From: Lysobacteraceae bacterium
GTDB lineage: Bacteria > Pseudomonadota > Gammaproteobacteria > Xanthomonadales > Xanthomonadaceae
NCBI GenBank assembly: GCA_017990865.1
Contig: JAGNNB010000041.1
Location: 1-12,796, forward strand
DNA length: 12,796 bases
Direction of reading: 5' to 3'
Part shown: positions 1,347 to 10,429 of the stretch, in pieces
Layout of the letters: each line of letters begins with the position of its first letter
Numbering within the stretch: the first letter of the stretch is position 1
Notes under the pieces: model-generated
Told to the model about the DNA's origin: nothing
The model's input: the letters and a program-made list of their open reading frames with translations, nothing else
Databases searched by the model: none
Position numbers and translations under genes: made by a program

Positions 1347-3134
1347 ATGGCCGAACCATTCGACGACGAACGCCGTGTCGCGCTGGGACCACAGCAGCGA
1401 AACGCACCTCAACGCGAAGTTGTGACGATTAACGGACTCAACGCTGTTTCCTACTTCGCGATCGGCGTGGCATCGGAAGGCGGTAGGAATCCGTACGCGC
1501 TCTCATTCGCCGGAAGCATCGGAAACGATGGCCGAATGCGGCCTGTGGATGACAGCGGCCTGACGATCGGTACCCTGCAAATCGACTTTGGGCAACGGCC
1601 TGCGGTCGCGAAAGAACTCGTCGAGGCTTATCAGGCCTGGGCTCCGGCGAACGAGAGATTTACGGCACAGAATCGCGATCGCGCGATCAGAGACCTAAGT
1701 CGGGACGGCGACGCGATTCGAGCCGATAACGGACGGTCGATGGATGCCGTTTCGCAAAGGCGCATCAACACCTACCTTGCGTCCGAAGCCGGGATCAATT
1801 TCGTGCATCGGCACGATGCTTTGCAGGCCCGGACGCTGGCCACTGACGTCTATACACCTTTGAGTACGACGCGTTTGTTCAGCAATGCGTCGTTCGACGA
1901 TCAGGTCAGAATAGCCACGGTGATGGGAAAGCTGCACAACCAGAACCCGGGGCAAGCCGAGCGAATGTTCGATCGCATCGAAAACAACGAATTTCGGAAT
2001 TTCGGCCAGCTCAATAACGCCATCACCGCCATCGGCGGGAGCATCCGCGATGGGCGTGACGACGCGCTACAAGGCGCGGAAGTGATCATCGCACTCCATC
2101 ATAGCGATCGACGAAGCCCGTTGCGGGACGATTGGAGCAGCGTTATTTCGAATCCCCTCGTCAATCCGAATGATCTCGACGCGAACAACGCCAATCGGAA
2201 TTTGCCGCGGCATTACGCCGTGATCAAAGAGCTGTTCTTGCAGCGTTCAAGTTCGCCGGAATTCATCGAAGCGCTCAGTCGAGGCGGCGATTATCGTATC
2301 GGCCAGACGTCGACCAAAAACGGCGAGAGGTTCGTCAGCGACGGCCTTTACGCATCCGGAAACAACTTCGTCGTTTGGGACAGGAACGGGCACGGCATCG
2401 CCAGTATCAATGGCGTCTACAGCGAGTTCGATCGCGATCAATTGCGGCGCGTGAACAATCGCGACGGCACGATCGATCTGCAATTGGAGCGCAATGGGCG
2501 ACGGACGCCTCTTCTTCATATCGACCCCGACGCACCGGATCTGCGGCCCGTTGCGCCGCAACCGCGCGGACAGGGTCGGCGCGCGTCTTTGGACATCGAA
2601 GAACCCGGCCAATCGCTCGAAAGTCGGCCGCGGACAGCGCTGATTTCCGACCCGGGTTTCGACGCGTCCGCACATCAGACCTGGCTGCAAACCTCGACTG
2701 CGCTCGACCGCGCGCCGATCGAAAAGCTCGGCGATCTGTCGCCACAGCAGCGCGAACGTCTCGCCGCCAACGTGGCGGCGAACGTCGTCGGCGACGTTCA
2801 AACAGGCATGACGGGCGTGACCCGGATCGACGCGAGCACGATCGTCAATCCGCAAACCGGTCTGCCGCAATACGTGATCGCAGGCCAGGGCGACCCGACC
2901 ACGGCGCACTACAAGCGCGTCGCGGTCGATCTGGGGCAAGCGATCGAGACCCCCGTCGAGCGTTCGTCCGAGATCGCCAATGCCGGCGTGGACGCGCGGG
3001 AACAAAAGCAAGCGCAGACCATCGCCCAGGCGCAAACCCTGCAACAAGACGCGCCGAACGGCCCAACGATGACGCTCGGGGGCCGGACCATCGGGATGGC
3101 CGGTCAGGACGGCAGCGCTTCCGGTACCGGCTGA
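1347..3134 (+). CDS. Type IV secretion effector (X-Tfe type) with lysozyme-like N-terminus and C-terminal XVIPCD
   Basis: The protein has 595 residues from the ATG at 1347, preceded by a purine-rich AGGGGAGCAAGGA. The frame is open further upstream, but that part overlaps the preceding gene. There is no signal peptide. Residues about 25-260 resemble peptidoglycan-cleaving effectors: AIGVASEGGRNPYALS with a candidate catalytic Glu44, then SGLTIGTLQIDFGQ (70-83). Residues about 370-425 hold a small beta-rich stretch (VVWDRNGHG, then SINGVYSEF). From about 435 the sequence fits the XVIPCD recognised by VirD4 of the Xanthomonadales antibacterial T4SS: DPGFDASAHQTW, a basic/acidic helix, then YVIAGQGDPTTAHYKRV and QAIETPVERSSE (to about 540), followed by a Gln-rich tail (551-569). 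The inferred role is delivery into rival cells to cut peptidoglycan, with the upstream protein giving self-protection. No T4SS structural genes are in view. The XVIPCD is the firmest part, and the exact hydrolase activity the weakest. Confidence 0.82.
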   Translation: MAEPFDDERRVALGPQQRNAPQREVVTINGLNAVSYFAIGVASEGGRNPYALSFAGSIGNDGRMRPVDDSGLTIGTLQIDFGQRPAVAKELVEAYQAWAPANERFTAQNRDRAIRDLSRDGDAIRADNGRSMDAVSQRRINTYLASEAGINFVHRHDALQARTLATDVYTPLSTTRLFSNASFDDQVRIATVMGKLHNQNPGQAERMFDRIENNEFRNFGQLNNAITAIGGSIRDGRDDALQGAEVIIALHHSDRRSPLRDDWSSVISNPLVNPNDLDANNANRNLPRHYAVIKELFLQRSSSPEFIEALSRGGDYRIGQTSTKNGERFVSDGLYASGNNFVVWDRNGHGIASINGVYSEFDRDQLRRVNNRDGTIDLQLERNGRRTPLLHIDPDAPDLRPVAPQPRGQGRRASLDIEEPGQSLESRPRTALISDPGFDASAHQTWLQTSTALDRAPIEKLGDLSPQQRERLAANVAANVVGDVQTGMTGVTRIDASTIVNPQTGLPQYVIAGQGDPTTAHYKRVAVDLGQAIETPVERSSEIANAGVDAREQKQAQTIAQAQTLQQDAPNGPTMTLGGRTIGMAGQDGSASGTG

Positions 3135-3147
3135 ACGGTTGGAGGCA

Positions 3148-3526
3148 GTTCCAGCTTTAGGCTAAAGCGCATTTCCTGATCTGTTACGCTCATCTCCTCT
3201 CACAGCAACACCACACCACCTGTTCCGGCTAGAGCGCATTTCCTGATCTGTTACGCTCCAACGGCCAGCGGGCAAAGAAAGTGAAGATGTTCCGGCTAGA
3301 GCGCATTTCCTGATCTGTTACGCTCTCTCGCTGGTCATGGCGCCTCCACTTTGTAGTTCCGGCTAGAGCGCATTTCCTGATCTGTTACGCTCGGCCATGA
3401 GTAACGACATGACGGATGCTGAGTTCCGGCTAGAGCGCATTTCCTGATTTGTTATGCTCGTCTGGTCACTCATGGCCGGCTCCCGCTTTGTTCCGGCTAA
3501 AGCGCATTTCCTGATCTGTTACGCTC
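3148..3526 (+). CRISPR. Type II-C CRISPR array, 6 repeats and 5 spacers
   Basis: Repeats of 37 nt start at 3222, 3289, 3356, 3423 and 3490, exactly 67 nt apart, plus a variant first repeat at 3148-3191. All five spacers are 30 nt: 3192-3221, 3259-3288, 3326-3355, 3393-3422 and 3460-3489. The repeat begins GTTCCGGCTAGAGCGC and ends GATCTGTTACGCTC. Repeat positions 9-30 are the exact reverse complement of the tracrRNA anti-repeat at 6874-6895, which fixes crRNA orientation on the plus strand, opposite to cas9. Each repeat ends with TGTTACGCT, a possible extended -10 element (TGnTAnnnT), as in other II-C arrays where every repeat carries its own promoter. Repeat 1 has a 7-nt insertion. Repeat 5 has two C-to-T changes (positions 27 and 33). 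Repeats 1 and 6 share a G-to-A change (position 11). No spacer obviously matches elsewhere in the window. There is no visible leader; the array sits between the effector stop and a broken cas1. Confidence 0.97.
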
Positions 3527-3618
3527 AGTTCGGCGCCATGACGCTCCGCCACCAGGAAGCCGCGATCCATGTGCAGATAGCGACCTTCGCCCGCCAACTC
3601 GACGATGCGGCCGATCAT
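3527..3618 (-). pseudogene. cas1: cas1 remnant, first ~30 codons, cut at the edge of the last CRISPR repeat
   Basis: The reverse strand from the ATG at 3618-3616 reads MIGRIVELAGEGRYLHMDRG then FLVAERHGAEL, a clear match to the start of type II Cas1 (typically MIGRIVEIAEDGRHL..RGFLVV). Its ATG overlaps the cas9 TGA in an ATGA arrangement, the normal translational coupling of cas9-cas1. The similarity ends at residue 30-31, precisely where CRISPR repeat 6 begins. The frame then runs through repeat DNA and stops at 3466, giving a 50-residue chimera. Cas1 is normally about 300 residues, with its catalytic Glu/His/Asp in the missing part, so no integrase can be made. cas2 is absent too. The family assignment rests on about 30 residues but is strengthened by position and coupling. 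Confidence 0.88.
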
Positions 3619-6600
3619 GGCGTGAAGCCCGGGTCGTTGACATAACCGAGGATATCGACGCCGACGACGCGTGCTTGAATCTGTTTCAGCGCTGATGGCG
3701 CTTTGAAAAGGTAGCGTAAGTCCTTGTTGCGCGCGCGCATATCGACGTTCGCTTCGTTGGACGCGACCAGGGCGATCATTCCCTCGGTGAATCTGGTGAT
3801 ACGCAGCAGTTGCGCGCGCCCGTCGATCTCGGTCATCAGGATGTCGCCCTTGCGCAGACGCATCAGCAAAGGCCGTCCTTCGCCGTCGAATTTTGGGGTG
3901 CTTTCCGCCTCGCGTTCCGGCCACTGGTTCGCTTCGTAGAGTGTGGCGACGCGGCCGTCCCAACGACCATCGTCGCGAAGGAAAATGTCGTAGCAGTAGT
4001 TGCCGTCGCCTTTGACGTAGCGATAGGGCTTTCGATCGCGTCGGTCGTGAATCGGGATCACCGACAAGCGTTCTTGCTTCATCACGCGGCGAATCCCGGT
4101 GCTTTCACCGAACCGCTGCAACGCAGCCTTGATGTCCTTGGCGCTGCCCAGCGGTTCGAGCACGGCCTGCAGGCGCGTACGCAGGCCGTCGTCGGCGAGG
4201 CCCCCCAGATCGGCCACGCCCTTCAGGCTGTCCAGCGGCACGTACCGGCCCACCAAGGGCACGCCTTTTTTGTCCGCTTCTCCGCGCAGCCCGTAATGCG
4301 TGTCGTTGTGGAGCGCGGCTTCCCTGCCGTGATCCGGCTTATGCGACACCACCACCTTATTCAAGGTGTCGCGCAAATCGTCGCGGAAGCTGGGCCATGG
4401 GAACGCCAAGTTTTCCAACAAACGGTGTTCGCCGCGTGTCTCCGCGCGCGCTGCGGCAGTGGCCACGCGCTGAATCAAGCTGCGACCGCATAAGCCGACG
4501 ACCGCGGCATCGAGCGCGTGATGGCGGTGATCGTTGCGGTTCTTGAGGTTGTCGCCGGACAACATGCGGTTCAACCCCCATTTGCCGCGCAGCATGCCGG
4601 TGAGTTTGCCGGTGCTGGTCCAAACGCGATCCTTGTGGCAGACATAGCTGAGGTATTGTTTGGCGACGCGCGAGAGGTAGGCGGTGTCGGTGAGGTGGCG
4701 GGCGAGGAAATCCTGATCGCCCAGAAAATGTCGCAGCGCGTCTTCGCGGAAATGTTCGGCCTTGCGGCGCGTGGCCGGATGTTTGCTGCCGGCGAACAAC
4801 TGCTGCACGCGCGACTCGATCGCAGCCCAATCGTAGCCCGGCGGCGAATGGCCGAAGGCTTCGTACGGCGTGCTGTTGCCTTTGTCGCGGTTGGCCTGAC
4901 GAAGACAGAGCGCTTTATTGCCGTTGCCGTCGTGCAGCGAGCGCGAGAACGGCAAAATATGATCGATTTCCACTTCGTCGCTGAACAGCATCGCCATGCC
5001 GATGCGGCGACCGGAGTAGACGCAGACGCGATCGAGCGCATCGTCCTCGCCGAGTTCGCGCCATAGCCGCAGACGCAGTCGATTCTCCCGATTGGGCGCT
5101 TGGCTGAGTGCGGTCAATGTTCGATCGAAGGCTTCGTTGCGCTTTTGGTTGTCGGCCTGTTCGCGTTCGATCTCGCGACGCCTTTCGCCGGAAAGCCCGA
5201 ATTCGCGCGCCAACTCGACGACGATCTCGCGCGGATGGCCATAACGGCGAATCAAGGCGTTCATCAGTTGTCGCAACTGATTCAAACCGATATGCACGGT
5301 AGGGTTGGCGATTTTGCCGTAGCGGCGCTCTTCCGGGTCTTTGGCGGACTCGGCCGGCGCGGTGTAGTTGCGCAGCACTTCGCCGTAGTACGGCATGCGC
5401 TTGTAGAACTCGCCGGTATGCAACTGCGAGTGATGCGCGTAACCCGCGCGCTGCACGGCGATGTCGTAGGTCACGACCTCGCGCTCCAGCTCGGGCACGA
5501 TCCGCTGCAAGGCTTTGCGGCTCAGGCTGCCATAGTCTTCGGGCAATCGGATGCGGGCGATCGCGCGAGCCTGCTCCGGCGCGATTCGGGGCGACTGCGC
5601 GAGCGCGTCCAGCCAGTGTTGTTCGAAAGGCTGCGGTCGCAGGATGTCCCTGGCTGGCGCGGTGTCGCCGGGCAGCGCCTGCAGCGCTTGGATCAGCGCA
5701 TCGTCCTGGTCGGCGCGCTCCACCAAGACGGCCAGCGCTTCTTGCGTAGGTTCGGGCAACGACCACCATGCTTCGCCCAGCGCGGCGGGATCCGAAAATT
5801 GCGCCGACGCGGCATCGCCGTTGAGCCCTTTGCGCTTTTCGGATTCCAGATTGAACGCGGTGGCTTTGCCGAGGCCGGCCGCCTTGGCGAGTTTGGCGAA
5901 GCTGACTTGCTTGGGCTCGCTCAGCAGCAGATCGCGCATGCGATTGCGTTCGTCGAGGCTCAGCGGGCGGTAGCCGACGCCCTCTTTCACGCGGAGATTG
6001 TTCAATTCCTGCAGAACGCGGAAACGCTGCTGCAGCGGCGCGCACAGCGGTAGCCGATGTTCGTGTTCTTCGAACAGACAGCGCCCGGGCAGCACGGGCT
6101 TGAGGCGGCGCTGGAACAACAAGATATCGATGAGCGTGTCGTGCAATGCTTGCGTCAGCAGATTTGTGTGATGCGCTTGTTGCGCTGCCCACAATCGCTC
6201 GAATTCGTCCTGCACCATGTCGCGCTGCAGATACAGCACGTAGTTGCCGTCGCTGCTGCGACGCGCACGCACCGGGCGGCGTTGGGCGTGTTCGCGGCCA
6301 AGATATTCGCCGACGGTACGGCAACCCGCAGCATCGATGCGGCGTTGAAGCGCTTTCACCGCTTCCTTGACTTTGCCCGATTCCTTTTCTTTCTCGGCGT
6401 CGCCTCGGTCTTTGCGGCTGCTCTTGAAGCCGCGCTTGCGGCAGAGGTGATACAAGGCCCGACCGAATTGATGCAAGCTGAGCGGCTCATCCAGCCCTTT
6501 GAGTCTGAGCTGGTAGGGGTCTTCTTGCTGGATCGCTTTTCGGCCTGCATCGTCGGCGGGCATGAGTCCCGCTTCGATCAACGCCTGCATCAGTTTTTGG

Positions 6601-6821
6601 CGACGCTTGAGGACGCGATCGCGGCGGCGACGGGCTTGGCGAGCCTGACGGCGACTGGCCGCGAGCGATGCGAGCGTTTTCGGATCGCGCCCATCCGAAA
6701 AAATCCGCGAACCCATCCTGACGATTCGCTGCGGCTCGCCTTCCGTATCGAGTGCATAGACGCACCAACCGATGGAATTGGTACCGATATCCAAGCCCAG
6801 TCTGTAATCCAGTTTCGCCAT
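3615..6821 (-). CDS. cas9: CRISPR-associated endonuclease Cas9, type II-C, 1068 aa
   Basis: This is the RNA-guided double-strand DNA nuclease of the locus. The start at 6821 follows GGGAGGA at 6825-6831. Length is typical of compact II-C Cas9. Visible parts: RuvC-I at 6-20 (YRLGLDIGTNSIGW, catalytic D11); Arg-rich bridge helix about 54-78; helical recognition lobe about 80-480; RuvC-II at 531-540 (REIVVELARE, E536); HNH about 595-660 (EVEIDHILPFSRSL, D620 and H621, with N635 in GNKALC); RuvC-III at 761-775 (HRHHALDAAVVG, H768 and D771); then a wedge/PAM-interacting C-terminal region to 1068. Every expected catalytic residue is present and no frameshift is seen, so it should be cleavage-competent. 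The stop overlaps the ATG of a cas1 remnant. The tracrRNA is divergent, with its anti-repeat only 52 nt upstream of the ATG. PAM preference cannot be read from sequence. The locus has no csn2 or cas4, consistent with II-C. Confidence 0.98.
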   Translation of the reverse strand: MAKLDYRLGLDIGTNSIGWCVYALDTEGEPQRIVRMGSRIFSDGRDPKTLASLAASRRQARQARRRRDRVLKRRQKLMQALIEAGLMPADDAGRKAIQQEDPYQLRLKGLDEPLSLHQFGRALYHLCRKRGFKSSRKDRGDAEKEKESGKVKEAVKALQRRIDAAGCRTVGEYLGREHAQRRPVRARRSSDGNYVLYLQRDMVQDEFERLWAAQQAHHTNLLTQALHDTLIDILLFQRRLKPVLPGRCLFEEHEHRLPLCAPLQQRFRVLQELNNLRVKEGVGYRPLSLDERNRMRDLLLSEPKQVSFAKLAKAAGLGKATAFNLESEKRKGLNGDAASAQFSDPAALGEAWWSLPEPTQEALAVLVERADQDDALIQALQALPGDTAPARDILRPQPFEQHWLDALAQSPRIAPEQARAIARIRLPEDYGSLSRKALQRIVPELEREVVTYDIAVQRAGYAHHSQLHTGEFYKRMPYYGEVLRNYTAPAESAKDPEERRYGKIANPTVHIGLNQLRQLMNALIRRYGHPREIVVELAREFGLSGERRREIEREQADNQKRNEAFDRTLTALSQAPNRENRLRLRLWRELGEDDALDRVCVYSGRRIGMAMLFSDEVEIDHILPFSRSLHDGNGNKALCLRQANRDKGNSTPYEAFGHSPPGYDWAAIESRVQQLFAGSKHPATRRKAEHFREDALRHFLGDQDFLARHLTDTAYLSRVAKQYLSYVCHKDRVWTSTGKLTGMLRGKWGLNRMLSGDNLKNRNDHRHHALDAAVVGLCGRSLIQRVATAAARAETRGEHRLLENLAFPWPSFRDDLRDTLNKVVVSHKPDHGREAALHNDTHYGLRGEADKKGVPLVGRYVPLDSLKGVADLGGLADDGLRTRLQAVLEPLGSAKDIKAALQRFGESTGIRRVMKQERLSVIPIHDRRDRKPYRYVKGDGNYCYDIFLRDDGRWDGRVATLYEANQWPEREAESTPKFDGEGRPLLMRLRKGDILMTEIDGRAQLLRITRFTEGMIALVASNEANVDMRARNKDLRYLFKAPSALKQIQARVVGVDILGYVNDPGFTP

Positions 6822-6862: not shown

Positions 6863-6868
6863 CGGCGG

Positions 6869-6966
6869 CACTGACAGATCAGGAAATGCGCTCTATCCGC
6901 TAACAAGCTGCTCAGCTTCGGCTGATAGATGCACCAAATCAGGCAAGGCCGGGCAACCGGCCTTTG
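6869..6966 (+). ncRNA. tracrRNA of the type II-C locus
   Basis: Positions 6874-6895 are a 22-nt perfect reverse complement of the CRISPR repeat core (repeat positions 9-30), and similarity continues more loosely to about 6904 (TCCGCTAAC against repeat start GTTCCGG). The rest has tracrRNA architecture: a short hairpin TCAGC-TTCG-GCTGA (6912-6925), a single-stranded linker, and a perfect 8-bp hairpin AAGGCCGG-GCAA-CCGGCCTT (6945-6964) closed by a GNRA tetraloop. Paired with a crRNA it would be cut by RNase III and held by Cas9. The 5' end is inferred from the promoter at 6834-6862. The 3' end may be just after 6964 or at the T-run near 7016. Neighbouring cas9 on the opposite strand supports the call. 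Confidence 0.9.
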
Positions 6967-6977
6967 TCGTGTCTGGC

Positions 6978-7016
6978 CGGCGGATATCATGTAACAACGT
7001 TGCCGCCGCTTTTTTT
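6978..7016 (+). terminator. Candidate Rho-independent terminator after tracrRNA
   Basis: CGGCGG (6978-6983) can pair with CCGCCG (7003-7008) across a 19-nt loop, followed by C and seven T residues (7010-7016). The T-run is conspicuous in GC-rich DNA and lies on the tracrRNA strand 14 nt beyond its last hairpin. The long loop makes the stem unremarkable; an alternative is that the 6945-6964 hairpin ends the transcript by itself with the short T-run there. Confidence 0.5.
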
Positions 7017-7187: not shown

Positions 7188-7336
7188 ATCGCGCCTGCCG
7201 GCGCTCCCACAAAAGCGGCAGATCGTCGGCTCAACTCGCGTTCTTCGCCTTCCACGCCGCCAACACTTCGGCTTCGCGTTCGGGTTTGATGCGCGCGCGC
7301 CGGCTTTGCGGCGCTCTTCGGGTTGCGAATCGAACC
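7188..7336 (-). repeat. Direct duplication, copy A
   Basis: Positions 7188-7292 are identical over 105 nt to 7578-7682 (offset 390). Homology continues with several changes and a net 4-nt deletion to 7336, against 7730 in copy B. The duplicated unit includes one REP-like arm (7189-7207, TCGCGCCTGCCGGCGCTCC), the short 3' flank, and the 3' end of the epimerase-like gene on the minus strand. The identical part spans the stop codon and the intergenic portion, while the more internal coding portion has diverged. Confidence 0.92.
7231..7336 (-). pseudogene. Remnant of the 3' end of an epimerase-like gene
   Basis: On the reverse strand this copy reads FD.QPEERRKAG.RA, then shifts frame because 4 nt are missing compared with the intact gene. 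The other frame then reaches the same terminal codons and TGA at 7233-7231. Only about 35 codons of a roughly 386-codon gene remain, and the sequence upstream (7337-7530) shows no epimerase similarity. It is best read as what is left of a tandem paralogue, or of a duplicated 3' end, and is not functional. Confidence 0.8.
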
Positions 7337-7536: not shown

Positions 7537-7597
7537 GGAGCGCCGGCAGGCGCGACCTGAGTGATCTCGAGATCACCATCGCGCCTGCCGGCGCTCC
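7537..7597. repeat. REP-like inverted pair with a perfect central palindrome
   Basis: GGAGCGCCGGCAGGCGCGA at 7537-7555 is perfectly complementary to TCGCGCCTGCCGGCGCTCC at 7579-7597 (19-bp arms). Between them lies the 16-nt perfect palindrome GTGATCTCGAGATCAC (7561-7576), so nearly the whole unit can fold into one long hairpin. The flanks TGTAGGAGCG and CGCTCCCACA match the style of dispersed REP elements of pseudomonads and xanthomonads. A single arm recurs at 7189-7207. It sits 24 nt past the stop of the epimerase-like gene and could end or protect its transcript. Confidence 0.88.
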
Positions 7598-7730
7598 CAC
7601 AAAAGCGGCAGATCGTCGGCTCAACTCGCGTTCTTCGCCTTCCACGCCGCCAACACTTCGGCTTCGCGTTCGGGTTTGATGCCCGCTCGCGGGCCCGCTT
7701 TGCGACGCTCTTCGGGTTGGGCGTCGAACC
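7578..7730 (-). repeat. Direct duplication, copy B (overlaps the intact gene's 3' end)
   Basis: This is the second copy of the segment at 7188-7336. It covers the right REP arm, the 3' flank, the TGA and the last roughly 36 codons of the intact epimerase-like gene. Identity is complete over 7578-7682. Confidence 0.92.
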
Positions 7731-8948: not shown

Positions 8949-10142
8949 TCAGGGGAACAGCTTCAACGTCAAACCGAAGCGGGTGAGGATCGGGTTGATC
9001 GGCTGGAACCAGGTGATCGGGGCGGCCACGCTGCAGTTGCTGTTTTGACCGGCGGGCAACTGGCCGCCCGAGGTCACGCCTTGGGCCTGACCGGTGCCGG
9101 TGATCCACGAACCGCCGGAGTCGCCGCGACCGGCGCAAGCGGTGGACCGGGTGAGGCCGTTCACGTTGCCGGTGCCGTAGTTCACCGTGTTGTTGAAGGA
9201 CACGATGGTGCCGCAGCGCCAGCCGGTGGTCCGGCCGGAACGGCAAACTGCCGCGCCGATCGGCGCCGCGGTGCGGCCAAGGACGTTCTGGAACGTGCCG
9301 TTGTACCGGGTGACTTGGCCGAACAACGTATCGGTGCTGCGGACGTTGGCCCACGCTTGGTCGCCGACCGGATAGAACTGGCCCTGCACCGAGCCGACCA
9401 ACGTGCCCGAAAGGCGCACTTGCGTGCCGACGCCGCCGCAATGGCCGGCCGTGGCGAAGCCCTTGGTGGCGCCGCGCGTCACCGGGAAACCGATCGAGCA
9501 CAGCCCGCCGCCGGATTGATACTCGATACCGCCGATCACGTTGAGCAACGGCGTGGGCGCTTCGTACGGCGACACTTCGAAACGGATCATGCCCGTATCG
9601 ATGCTGCTGGCCGCGATGAAATCCACCGCGCGCATCGAATAGCCCGACGCGACCGTGATCACGACTTTGTTGTTGGGCACGTCCACCGCCCAGGCATGCA
9701 CGCCGACGAGACGGCTCTTCTGCCGGGTCGCGTTGTGGATGGCGTTCAATTCGGCCACCGCATTGTCCAGTTGGCGTACGGTGTAACGATGCTGACGCAC
9801 TTCGATTCCGCCGGCCGCCGCGACTTTGGCGGAACCGGTGGTGGCGACCACATAACGGTATTCGCCGTCGGCGCCGCGTTCCAACCAGCTACCGGCGAAA
9901 CGATCGCCTATTTGCTTCGTCATGCGCGCTTCGTTGACGTAGGCGGTGCGCTCGGCGTTGAAATATTTCGCGAGCTGCGCGTCGTTCATACCGAGATCGC
10001 GCTTCATCGCATGGGCGACGGCCTTGCTGAGCACCGGCTCGCGCTCGGCGGCCGAGACCTGACCGACAGCGAATGCGGCGACAGCCAACGACAAGGCGAT
10101 GGCGGTGCGGCGGAGGGGGCGGATGTGATGCGAATGAGACAT
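8949..10142 (-). CDS. Alpha-lytic-type serine protease, prepro-enzyme (S1 family)
   Basis: The protein has 397 residues, the same as Lysobacter alpha-lytic protease. The start at 10142 is chosen because AAGGAG (10151-10156) lies 8 nt upstream and a signal peptide (MSHSHHIRPLRRTAIALSLA) follows; the open frame further upstream is low-complexity shadow. A pro-region of about 32-200 matches the folding chaperone domain of this family (LSKAVAHAMKRDLGM, YRYVVATTG, ATRQKSRLVGVHAW). The mature enzyme probably begins at N201 (NVIGGIEYQS). The triad is H234 (TAGHCG), D261 (DQAW) and S342 (GRGDSGGSW). Six cysteines, C215/C235, C300/C310 and C336/C370, match the three disulphides of alpha-lytic protease. 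The secreted enzyme cleaves after small residues and helps lyse other microbes. A strong terminator follows. Confidence 0.96.
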   Translation of the reverse strand: MSHSHHIRPLRRTAIALSLAVAAFAVGQVSAAEREPVLSKAVAHAMKRDLGMNDAQLAKYFNAERTAYVNEARMTKQIGDRFAGSWLERGADGEYRYVVATTGSAKVAAAGGIEVRQHRYTVRQLDNAVAELNAIHNATRQKSRLVGVHAWAVDVPNNKVVITVASGYSMRAVDFIAASSIDTGMIRFEVSPYEAPTPLLNVIGGIEYQSGGGLCSIGFPVTRGATKGFATAGHCGGVGTQVRLSGTLVGSVQGQFYPVGDQAWANVRSTDTLFGQVTRYNGTFQNVLGRTAAPIGAAVCRSGRTTGWRCGTIVSFNNTVNYGTGNVNGLTRSTACAGRGDSGGSWITGTGQAQGVTSGGQLPAGQNSNCSVAAPITWFQPINPILTRFGLTLKLFP

Positions 10143-10429
10143 GGACTTCGCTCCTTGAATGGATGTGTGCATCGCGGATGATCGACCGCACACGCGATTG
10201 CGATCGGCGGCGGTCGCGCGTCGATCCTGACTGCATCGGCGCAGCGCGAAGCTAACCGAAGCGACCACCGTCGGACTGCGACCGCCAGCGCAGAAGCGAA
10301 AGAACGAAAACGCATATCGACCTGTGCGGCGCAGCAATTCGCGAGCGTATGGAGAGATGTCTCTGCAAGTCCGACGCGCGCGAAATATGAACAAGATCGA
10401 TGCGATCTCTGCGTATCGAACAACGAAGA

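What the first reader, a model, noticed from the sequence alone, without database searches (positions are those of the whole stretch)
3527..3618. cas1 truncated exactly at a CRISPR repeat edge: Cas9 system with a frozen spacer memory
cas9 is intact and its stop overlaps a cas1 ATG in the usual ATGA coupling, but only about 30 cas1 codons remain. The break coincides to the base with the end of repeat 6 (3526/3527). cas2 and a leader are missing. The simplest reading is one deletion joining cas1 to a repeat, removing cas1, cas2, the acquisition end and the youngest spacers while leaving cas9, tracrRNA and five spacers. The junction at the repeat border hints that the repeat end itself was the target, for example by aberrant Cas1-Cas2 integration or excision at a repeat boundary rather than random deletion.
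Basis: partly seen in the sequence, partly recalled or inferred. Interest (0 to 1): 0.78.

Follow-up and report, generated by a model that had tools for sequence, protein, structure and literature searches.

The report
Cas9 locus that lost spacer acquisition
A bacterial Cas9 immune locus kept its cutting enzyme and five stored phage memories but lost, apparently by a deletion, the genes that record new ones; the same kind of loss was found in a few other bacteria, so it looks like a recurrent form of decay rather than a new system.

Summary
At 3618-3527 (minus strand) the first 92 nt of a type II-C cas1 follow an intact cas9 in ATGA overlap and run straight into a complete CRISPR repeat (3490-3526). 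The rest of cas1, cas2 and the leader are absent. No Cas1 or Cas2 was found elsewhere in the 86.5% complete genome. Relatives ordered cas9-cas1-cas2-array make one deletion of about 1.3 kb or more the simplest reading; the lost end is the acquisition end of II-C arrays.

A second, independent case exists (L028, another genus): cas1 cut after 16-17 codons, joined to a repeat, 5 of 8 interior repeats mutated. Of 141 evaluable Cas9 loci, six have cas9 and an adjacent array but no intact II-C cas1; in all six the loss begins within about 100 nt of the cas9 stop. In four of these six the repeat next to the cas genes has mutated, against 1 of 92 other arrays. cas9 and tracrRNA pairing look preserved, so this is probably an interference-only Cas9 locus with a frozen memory. 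Cas1-Cas2 attack at the repeat edge is not shown. Cas9-only II-C loci are already known (Campylobacter coli clade 3).

The parts
3615..6821 (-). cas9, 1068 aa, type II-C-like, intact
   Evidence: no lone change at columns where all other rows of a 101-row Cas9 alignment agree
3527..3618 (-). cas1 remnant, 30 codons + 2 nt, start codon overlaps cas9 stop (ATGA)
3466..3618 (-). fused 50-aa ORF: cas1 start + repeat 6 + part of spacer 5 read through
3490..3526 (+). repeat 6, cas-proximal (acquisition-side) repeat, complete to its last base, one substitution
3222..3459 (+). repeats 2-5 with spacers 2-4; the repeat at 3423 has two substitutions
3155..3191 (+). repeat 1, the 'extra' oldest repeat, four substitutions in its 5' part
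   Evidence: II-C polarity from PMC12080349 (passages)
3192..3489 (+). five 30-nt spacers: 3192-3221, 3259-3288, 3326-3355, 3393-3422, 3460-3489
6867..6990 (+). tracrRNA region (ends approximate); anti-repeat 6874-6899, stem-loops downstream

Best explanation
A type II-C CRISPR-Cas9 locus lost its adaptation module in a deletion of about 1.3 kb or more that joins cas1 nt 92 to the cas-proximal edge of a repeat. cas9, tracrRNA and five spacers remain. Spacer acquisition in cis is therefore impossible (shown by anatomy). Interference is probably still possible: each spacer is followed by a repeat that pairs with tracrRNA, and Cas9 is intact (inferred). The array is a frozen memory that can only decay or be exchanged by recombination (inferred). 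The deletion most likely arose by ordinary illegitimate recombination, kept because both flanks (cas9 and array) stayed functional (inferred).
For: cas1 is intact downstream of cas9 in 130 of 141 evaluable loci (exclusions in the report). No Cas1 or Cas2 in G000. L028 is an independent second case with no Cas1 or Cas2 in its genome; the Cas9 tree forces two changes. Interior repeats are mutated in 5 of 8 (L028) and 1 of 4 (window), and in 8 of 63 over all six loci without cas1, against 26 of 1869 in 92 other arrays. The repeat next to the cas genes deviates in 4 of the 6 (window, L028, L258, L259) and in 1 of the 92 others, a remote second array of L027. Repeat:tracrRNA pairing is -44.5 kcal/mol or stronger in repeats 2-6; the extra repeat is weakest, -41.7.
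Against: G000 is 86.5% complete, so a Cas1 in the missing part is not excluded. No sister strain with the same older spacers was found, so deletion size and lost spacers are inferred. For the window alone repeat decay is slight (three substitutions in repeats 2-6), and cas9 could have stayed open by chance (P 0.20-0.27). Three of the six losses (L033, L189, L258) show no interior repeat decay (0 of 43), and L163, with intact cas1, has 6 of 13 mutated. No expression data; no sigma-70-like promoter was found at 3050-3700.
Confidence: 0.85

Rival explanations
1. Cas1-Cas2 itself caused the deletion: a break at the leader-repeat edge, its normal integration site, was joined to cas1.
For: The junction is exactly at the cas-proximal repeat edge, the side where II-C arrays acquire spacers (PMC12080349 and PMC6008519, passages). 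L028 joins 4 nt inside the same side of a repeat.
Against: Two cases only; the other four losses end in cas1, cas2 or within 47 nt before the array. No inserted DNA at the junction. The L033 junction lies at a short stretch alike in cas9 and cas2 of its sister, as in ordinary microhomology joining.
Confidence: 0.08
2. Step-wise erosion: cas1-cas2 were first inactivated by small mutations, then non-functional DNA was trimmed until it met the two functional borders, cas9 and the last repeat.
For: All six losses start within about 100 nt of the cas9 stop; the L028 array is visibly decayed.
Against: Arrays in L033, L189 and L258 have no mutated interior repeat (0 of 43), which suggests recent losses; none of the six carries a long broken cas1, the longest remnant being about 64 residues in L259. 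L117 and L169, unresolved, could be exceptions.
Confidence: 0.25
3. Assembly artefact from CRISPR repeats in a metagenome assembly.
For: Fragmented assembly: 551 contigs, 86.5% complete.
Against: cas1 and the repeat share only one base at the border, so a repeat-driven misjoin would not create that adjacency (it could alter spacer number). The ORF is on two contigs. L028 shows the same arrangement in a 647-kb contig.
Confidence: 0.05
4. Acquisition continues with Cas1-Cas2 supplied in trans by another CRISPR system, as type VI-B does in Flavobacterium columnare.
For: Known in principle (PMC8092290, listing and passages).
Against: No Cas1 or Cas2 found in the genome; leader lost; the last repeat carries a substitution seen in none of repeats 2-5 (only in the extra repeat), so it has not been copied inward.
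Confidence: 0.05

Closest known systems
Campylobacter coli clade 3 'Cas9-only' type II-C locus (PMC4607530, passages)
   Same: cas9 without cas1 or cas2, no other cas genes elsewhere in the genomes examined there; [quoted passage not shown]
   Different: The passages I saw mention no cas1 remnant joined to a repeat and no loss of the leader
Canonical type II-C loci, e.g. Riemerella anatipestifer (PMC6008519, passages) and relatives L029, L026
   Same: cas9 and array architecture, tracrRNA upstream of cas9, 30-nt spacers
   Different: Window lacks cas1 beyond 30 codons, cas2 and the leader
L028 = L137, SCUI01000010.1, Lysobacteraceae bacterium FW602_bin.31
   Same: cas1 5' end joined directly to a repeat; no leader; no Cas1 or Cas2 found in the genome
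   Different: cut after 16-17 codons, 4 nt of the repeat lost, more decayed array; independent event

Membership tests
Type II-C CRISPR-Cas | Cas9 effector of the cas_Csn1 family | tested here: met
   TIGR01865 E 4.6e-181, residues 6-1059; the model is not II-C-specific
Type II-C CRISPR-Cas | tracrRNA whose anti-repeat pairs with the repeat | tested here: met
   6874-6899; duplex -50.9 kcal/mol for the consensus repeat
Type II-C CRISPR-Cas | cas9-cas1-cas2 with no fourth gene (csn2/cas4) | tested here: not met
   cas1 truncated, cas2 absent; nothing lies between the cas1 remnant and the array. Gene content is that of a degraded II-C locus
Type II-C CRISPR-Cas | Array read toward the cas genes, youngest end beside them, mutated extra repeat at the far end | tested here: met
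   Anti-repeat gives + strand crRNA sense; extra repeat at 3155 with four substitutions; rule from PMC12080349; transcription itself not tested
Cas9-only (adaptation-less) II-C locus | No cas1/cas2 at the locus or elsewhere | tested here: met
   with about 13.5% of the genome unseen
Cas9-only (adaptation-less) II-C locus | Interference still active | not testable with these tools
   Needs an assay; only sequence integrity shown

The most novel reading that the evidence does not exclude
II-C adaptation modules are lost by a recurrent, directed route: deletions that start at the cas9-cas1 border and, when the leader is lost, stop at or next to the repeat edge where Cas1-Cas2 normally cuts. The integrase would thus delete its own genes, turning an adaptive system into a fixed Cas9 memory that selection then keeps.
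Probability: 0.07. Interest if true: 0.75.

Novelty: new member of a known kind. Interest (0 to 1): 0.38.

Why it matters
It offers natural experiments on what happens to a CRISPR memory once writing stops: repeats diverge, while Cas9 and the tracrRNA pairing appear to hold. The six losses, with a shared border at the cas9 stop, make it testable whether bacteria gain by shedding adaptation while keeping interference.

Tried and rejected
No sister strain: the same-genus search gave Cas9 in 2 of 11 genomes, own included; the other (L029) has only 46-49% Cas9 identity. A named-genome scan with the single Cas9 found nothing; with an alignment it kept the best 80 of 476. The plasmid search found nothing. 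Phage search with 3320-3500: 24 records, the 20 listed at E about 2. Exact 19-21-nt spacer pieces in IMG/VR: 4 of 5 no match, spacer 4 two contigs. Fused-ORF search: own ORF and a frameshifted relative. L286 was first counted as a loss, then dropped: its cas1 lies divergently upstream. L118 (broken cas1 remnant, no array in reach) and L113 (no cas1, no array in reach) not counted. Repeat-pairing selection test in L028 suggestive only (P 0.045-0.067). Promoter/terminator scan of 3050-3700: none. Pfam did not recognise the 41-aa cas2-like tail of L189; pairwise it is 46% identical to the end of the L259 Cas2. A first integrity script failed through a wrong BLAST option and was replaced; a first Cas9 conservation script used 44 of 104 Cas9s and was replaced (101 of 104). 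Counts were redone with duplicates removed. Paper searches touching adaptation-less or frozen loci: (no hit).

Full report
WHAT IS THERE. The window is the whole contig C208 (12,796 nt) of a fragmented genome, 551 contigs, 86.5% complete. cas9 (3615-6821, minus) is intact, 1068 aa. Its stop overlaps the ATG of cas1; 92 nt of cas1 remain and end at 3527, and 3526 is the last base of a complete 37-nt repeat. Six repeats with five 30-nt spacers lie at 3155-3526. The tracrRNA anti-repeat is at 6874-6899. Because the anti-repeat on the + strand pairs with the + strand repeat, crRNAs read toward cas9, as in II-C systems. The repeat at 3155 carries four substitutions, all in its 5' part, and pairs most weakly with tracrRNA (-41.7 against -50.9 kcal/mol). 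That is the expected 'extra', oldest repeat: in II-C arrays spacers enter at the last, cas-proximal repeat, each repeat has its own promoter, and the first repeat is the mutated one (PMC12080349, passages; [quoted passage not shown] So the missing piece is the acquisition end. A simple sigma-70 scan found no promoter at 3050-3700.

DELETION. In the same genus, L029 has cas9, cas1, cas2 and a 14-repeat array. Measured on L029, the window lacks about 1.3 kb between cas1 nt 92 and the first repeat, or more if young spacers were lost too. No Cas1 (PF01867) or Cas2 (PF09827) was found in G000; the family search rang in 9 of 14 control genomes and the Cas2 search in 7 of 14. At the junction cas1 and repeat share one base (G), so a repeat-driven misassembly would not make this adjacency; it could still alter spacer number.

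HOW COMMON. Cas9 relatives were found in 13 of 395 family genomes, 15 of 398 order, 28 of 369 class, 7 of 233 Rhodanobacteraceae, 40 of 398 phylum genomes (other query), and in 476 named loci of which the best 80 were kept; these samples overlap, and I fetched downstream DNA for only part of the hits. In all 162 loci were examined: 110 in a first set, 52 in a second. Ten are second copies of the same contig (L130, L132, L137, L139, L143, L147, L171, L249, L296, L297). Of the 152 left I excluded ten that end too soon after cas9 (L112, L116, L126, L136, L141, L161, L172, L182, L282, L072) and L298, a cas9 fragment, leaving 141. cas1 is intact downstream of cas9 in 130. The other 11: six have an intact cas9 ORF and an adjacent array but no intact II-C cas1 (window, L028, L033, L189, L258, L259); L286 has cas1 moved to a divergent position; L113 has neither cas1 nor array in reach; L118 is broken; L117 and L169 have frame problems and were not resolved.

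THE SIX LOSSES. Window: cas1 kept 92 nt, then repeat edge. L028 (another genus; cas9 intact): cas1 kept about 47-50 nt, joined 4 nt inside a repeat, no leader, no Cas1 or Cas2 in that 91% complete genome. L033: cas9 fused in frame to the C-terminal part of cas2 at a short stretch alike in the two genes of its sister L034; array kept. The L034 gene is Cas2 by Pfam (E 9.4e-15); the L033 tail alone scores below the cut-off (E 0.029) but its DNA is 79% identical to that of L034. The L033 genome has three other Cas1 genes on other contigs. L189: a cas2-like tail starts right after cas9, array kept; Pfam misses this 41-aa tail, but it is 46% identical to the end of the L259 Cas2. L258: 47 nt from cas9 to the array; the only Cas1 of its genome lies 390 kb away and matches the II-C cas1 profile only in part. 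L259: cas1 resumes at residue 241 about 14 nt after cas9; cas2 (Pfam E 1.8e-16) and array kept; no PF01867 match in its genome. So the left border lies within about 100 nt of the cas9 stop in all six. If it were uniform over cas1 (about 930 nt), five further cases would do so with a chance of about 1e-5 to 1e-4; this is a post hoc estimate of mine, not a tool result. Long deletions that must spare both cas9 and the array would also give this. The right border is not constant.

INDEPENDENCE. In a 30-row Cas9 tree the two cas1-repeat fusions are separate (two changes forced by supported branches); L028 sits with L027, L135 and L029, all of which have cas1, and the window with other cas1-bearing loci. 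The cut points differ (codon 31 and codon 17).

IS THE MEMORY FROZEN. In active arrays new repeats are copied from the last one, so repeats stay alike (general knowledge). With duplicates removed (the close relative L128 of L026 was dropped there too), 92 other arrays with at least five repeats have 26 of 1869 interior repeats mutated. The six losses have 8 of 63: L028 5 of 8, L259 2 of 8, window 1 of 4, L033 0 of 15, L189 0 of 12, L258 0 of 16. The repeat next to the cas genes deviates in 4 of the 6 (window, L028, L258, L259) and in 1 of the 92 others, where it belongs to a remote second array (L027). Against a simple rule: three losses show no interior decay and may be recent, and L163, with intact cas1, has 6 of 13 interior repeats mutated, at its old end. 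The window's own signal is small.

IS IT STILL WORKING. Window and L028 Cas9 have no lone change at columns where all other rows of a 101-row alignment agree. If cas9 had drifted like the repeats it would have stayed free of stops with P 0.02-0.09 (L028) and 0.20-0.27 (window), so selection after the loss is suggested for L028 and unproved for the window. L028 substitutions disturb tracrRNA pairing less than random ones (P 0.045-0.067), which is only suggestive. Spacer 4 matches two IMG/VR contigs (20 exact bases at its 3' end, 23 of 30 overall); pieces of the other four spacers match none.

KNOWN OR NEW. Cas9-only II-C loci are in print: C. [quoted passage not shown] Flavobacterium branchiophilum lacks cas1 in its II-C locus, and in trans supply is shown for VI-B (PMC8092290, passages). 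I saw no report of cas1 starts fused to repeats or of the shared cas9-side border in the listings of searches. I file this as a new member of a known kind; the recurring border is the part worth following.

Noticed in passing
3326-3355, 3393-3422, 3460-3489: Three of five spacers (3 and 5 as reverse complement, 4 direct) read across an ATG start of similar sequence (GGCCATGAGT in 4 and 5); spacer 4 hits the start of a small phage gene (MSINDMTDAEL...) in L207 and L208. Repeated sampling of one gene start from related phages is possible.
   Followed up: partly
L033:4392-8075: Natural in-frame fusion ORF: Cas9 followed by the C-terminal part of Cas2, cas1 lost, 17 identical repeats; sister L034 has cas1 and cas2.
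   Followed up: partly
L027 about 9650-10410: A gene resembling a zeta-toxin-type nucleotide-binding protein (my reading of the sequence, no search) sits between cas9 and cas1; other loci (L135, L155, L160, L168, L175, L183) have gaps of about 630-700 nt there.
   Followed up: no
window 3527-3618 versus L029: The cas1 remnant is 93.5% identical to L029 although Cas9 is only 46-49% identical, while L026 with closer Cas9 (62%) has 71%; suggests past exchange near the cas9-cas1 border.
   Followed up: no
L286 / L300 (G708): II-C-like locus with cas1 divergent upstream of cas9 and 62 identical repeats starting 45 nt after cas9.
   Followed up: partly
L032 (G322): cas9 with a large internal deletion beside an intact cas1: the converse decay.
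   Followed up: no
window 1347-3134: Protein with an XVIPCD domain (PF20410, E 2.4e-05), typical of Xanthomonadales type IV secretion effectors (recalled), next to the old end of the array.
   Followed up: no
window about 7190-7330 and 7580-7700: Near-duplicate stretch (seen by eye) holding the 3' end of the epimerase-like gene.
   Followed up: no
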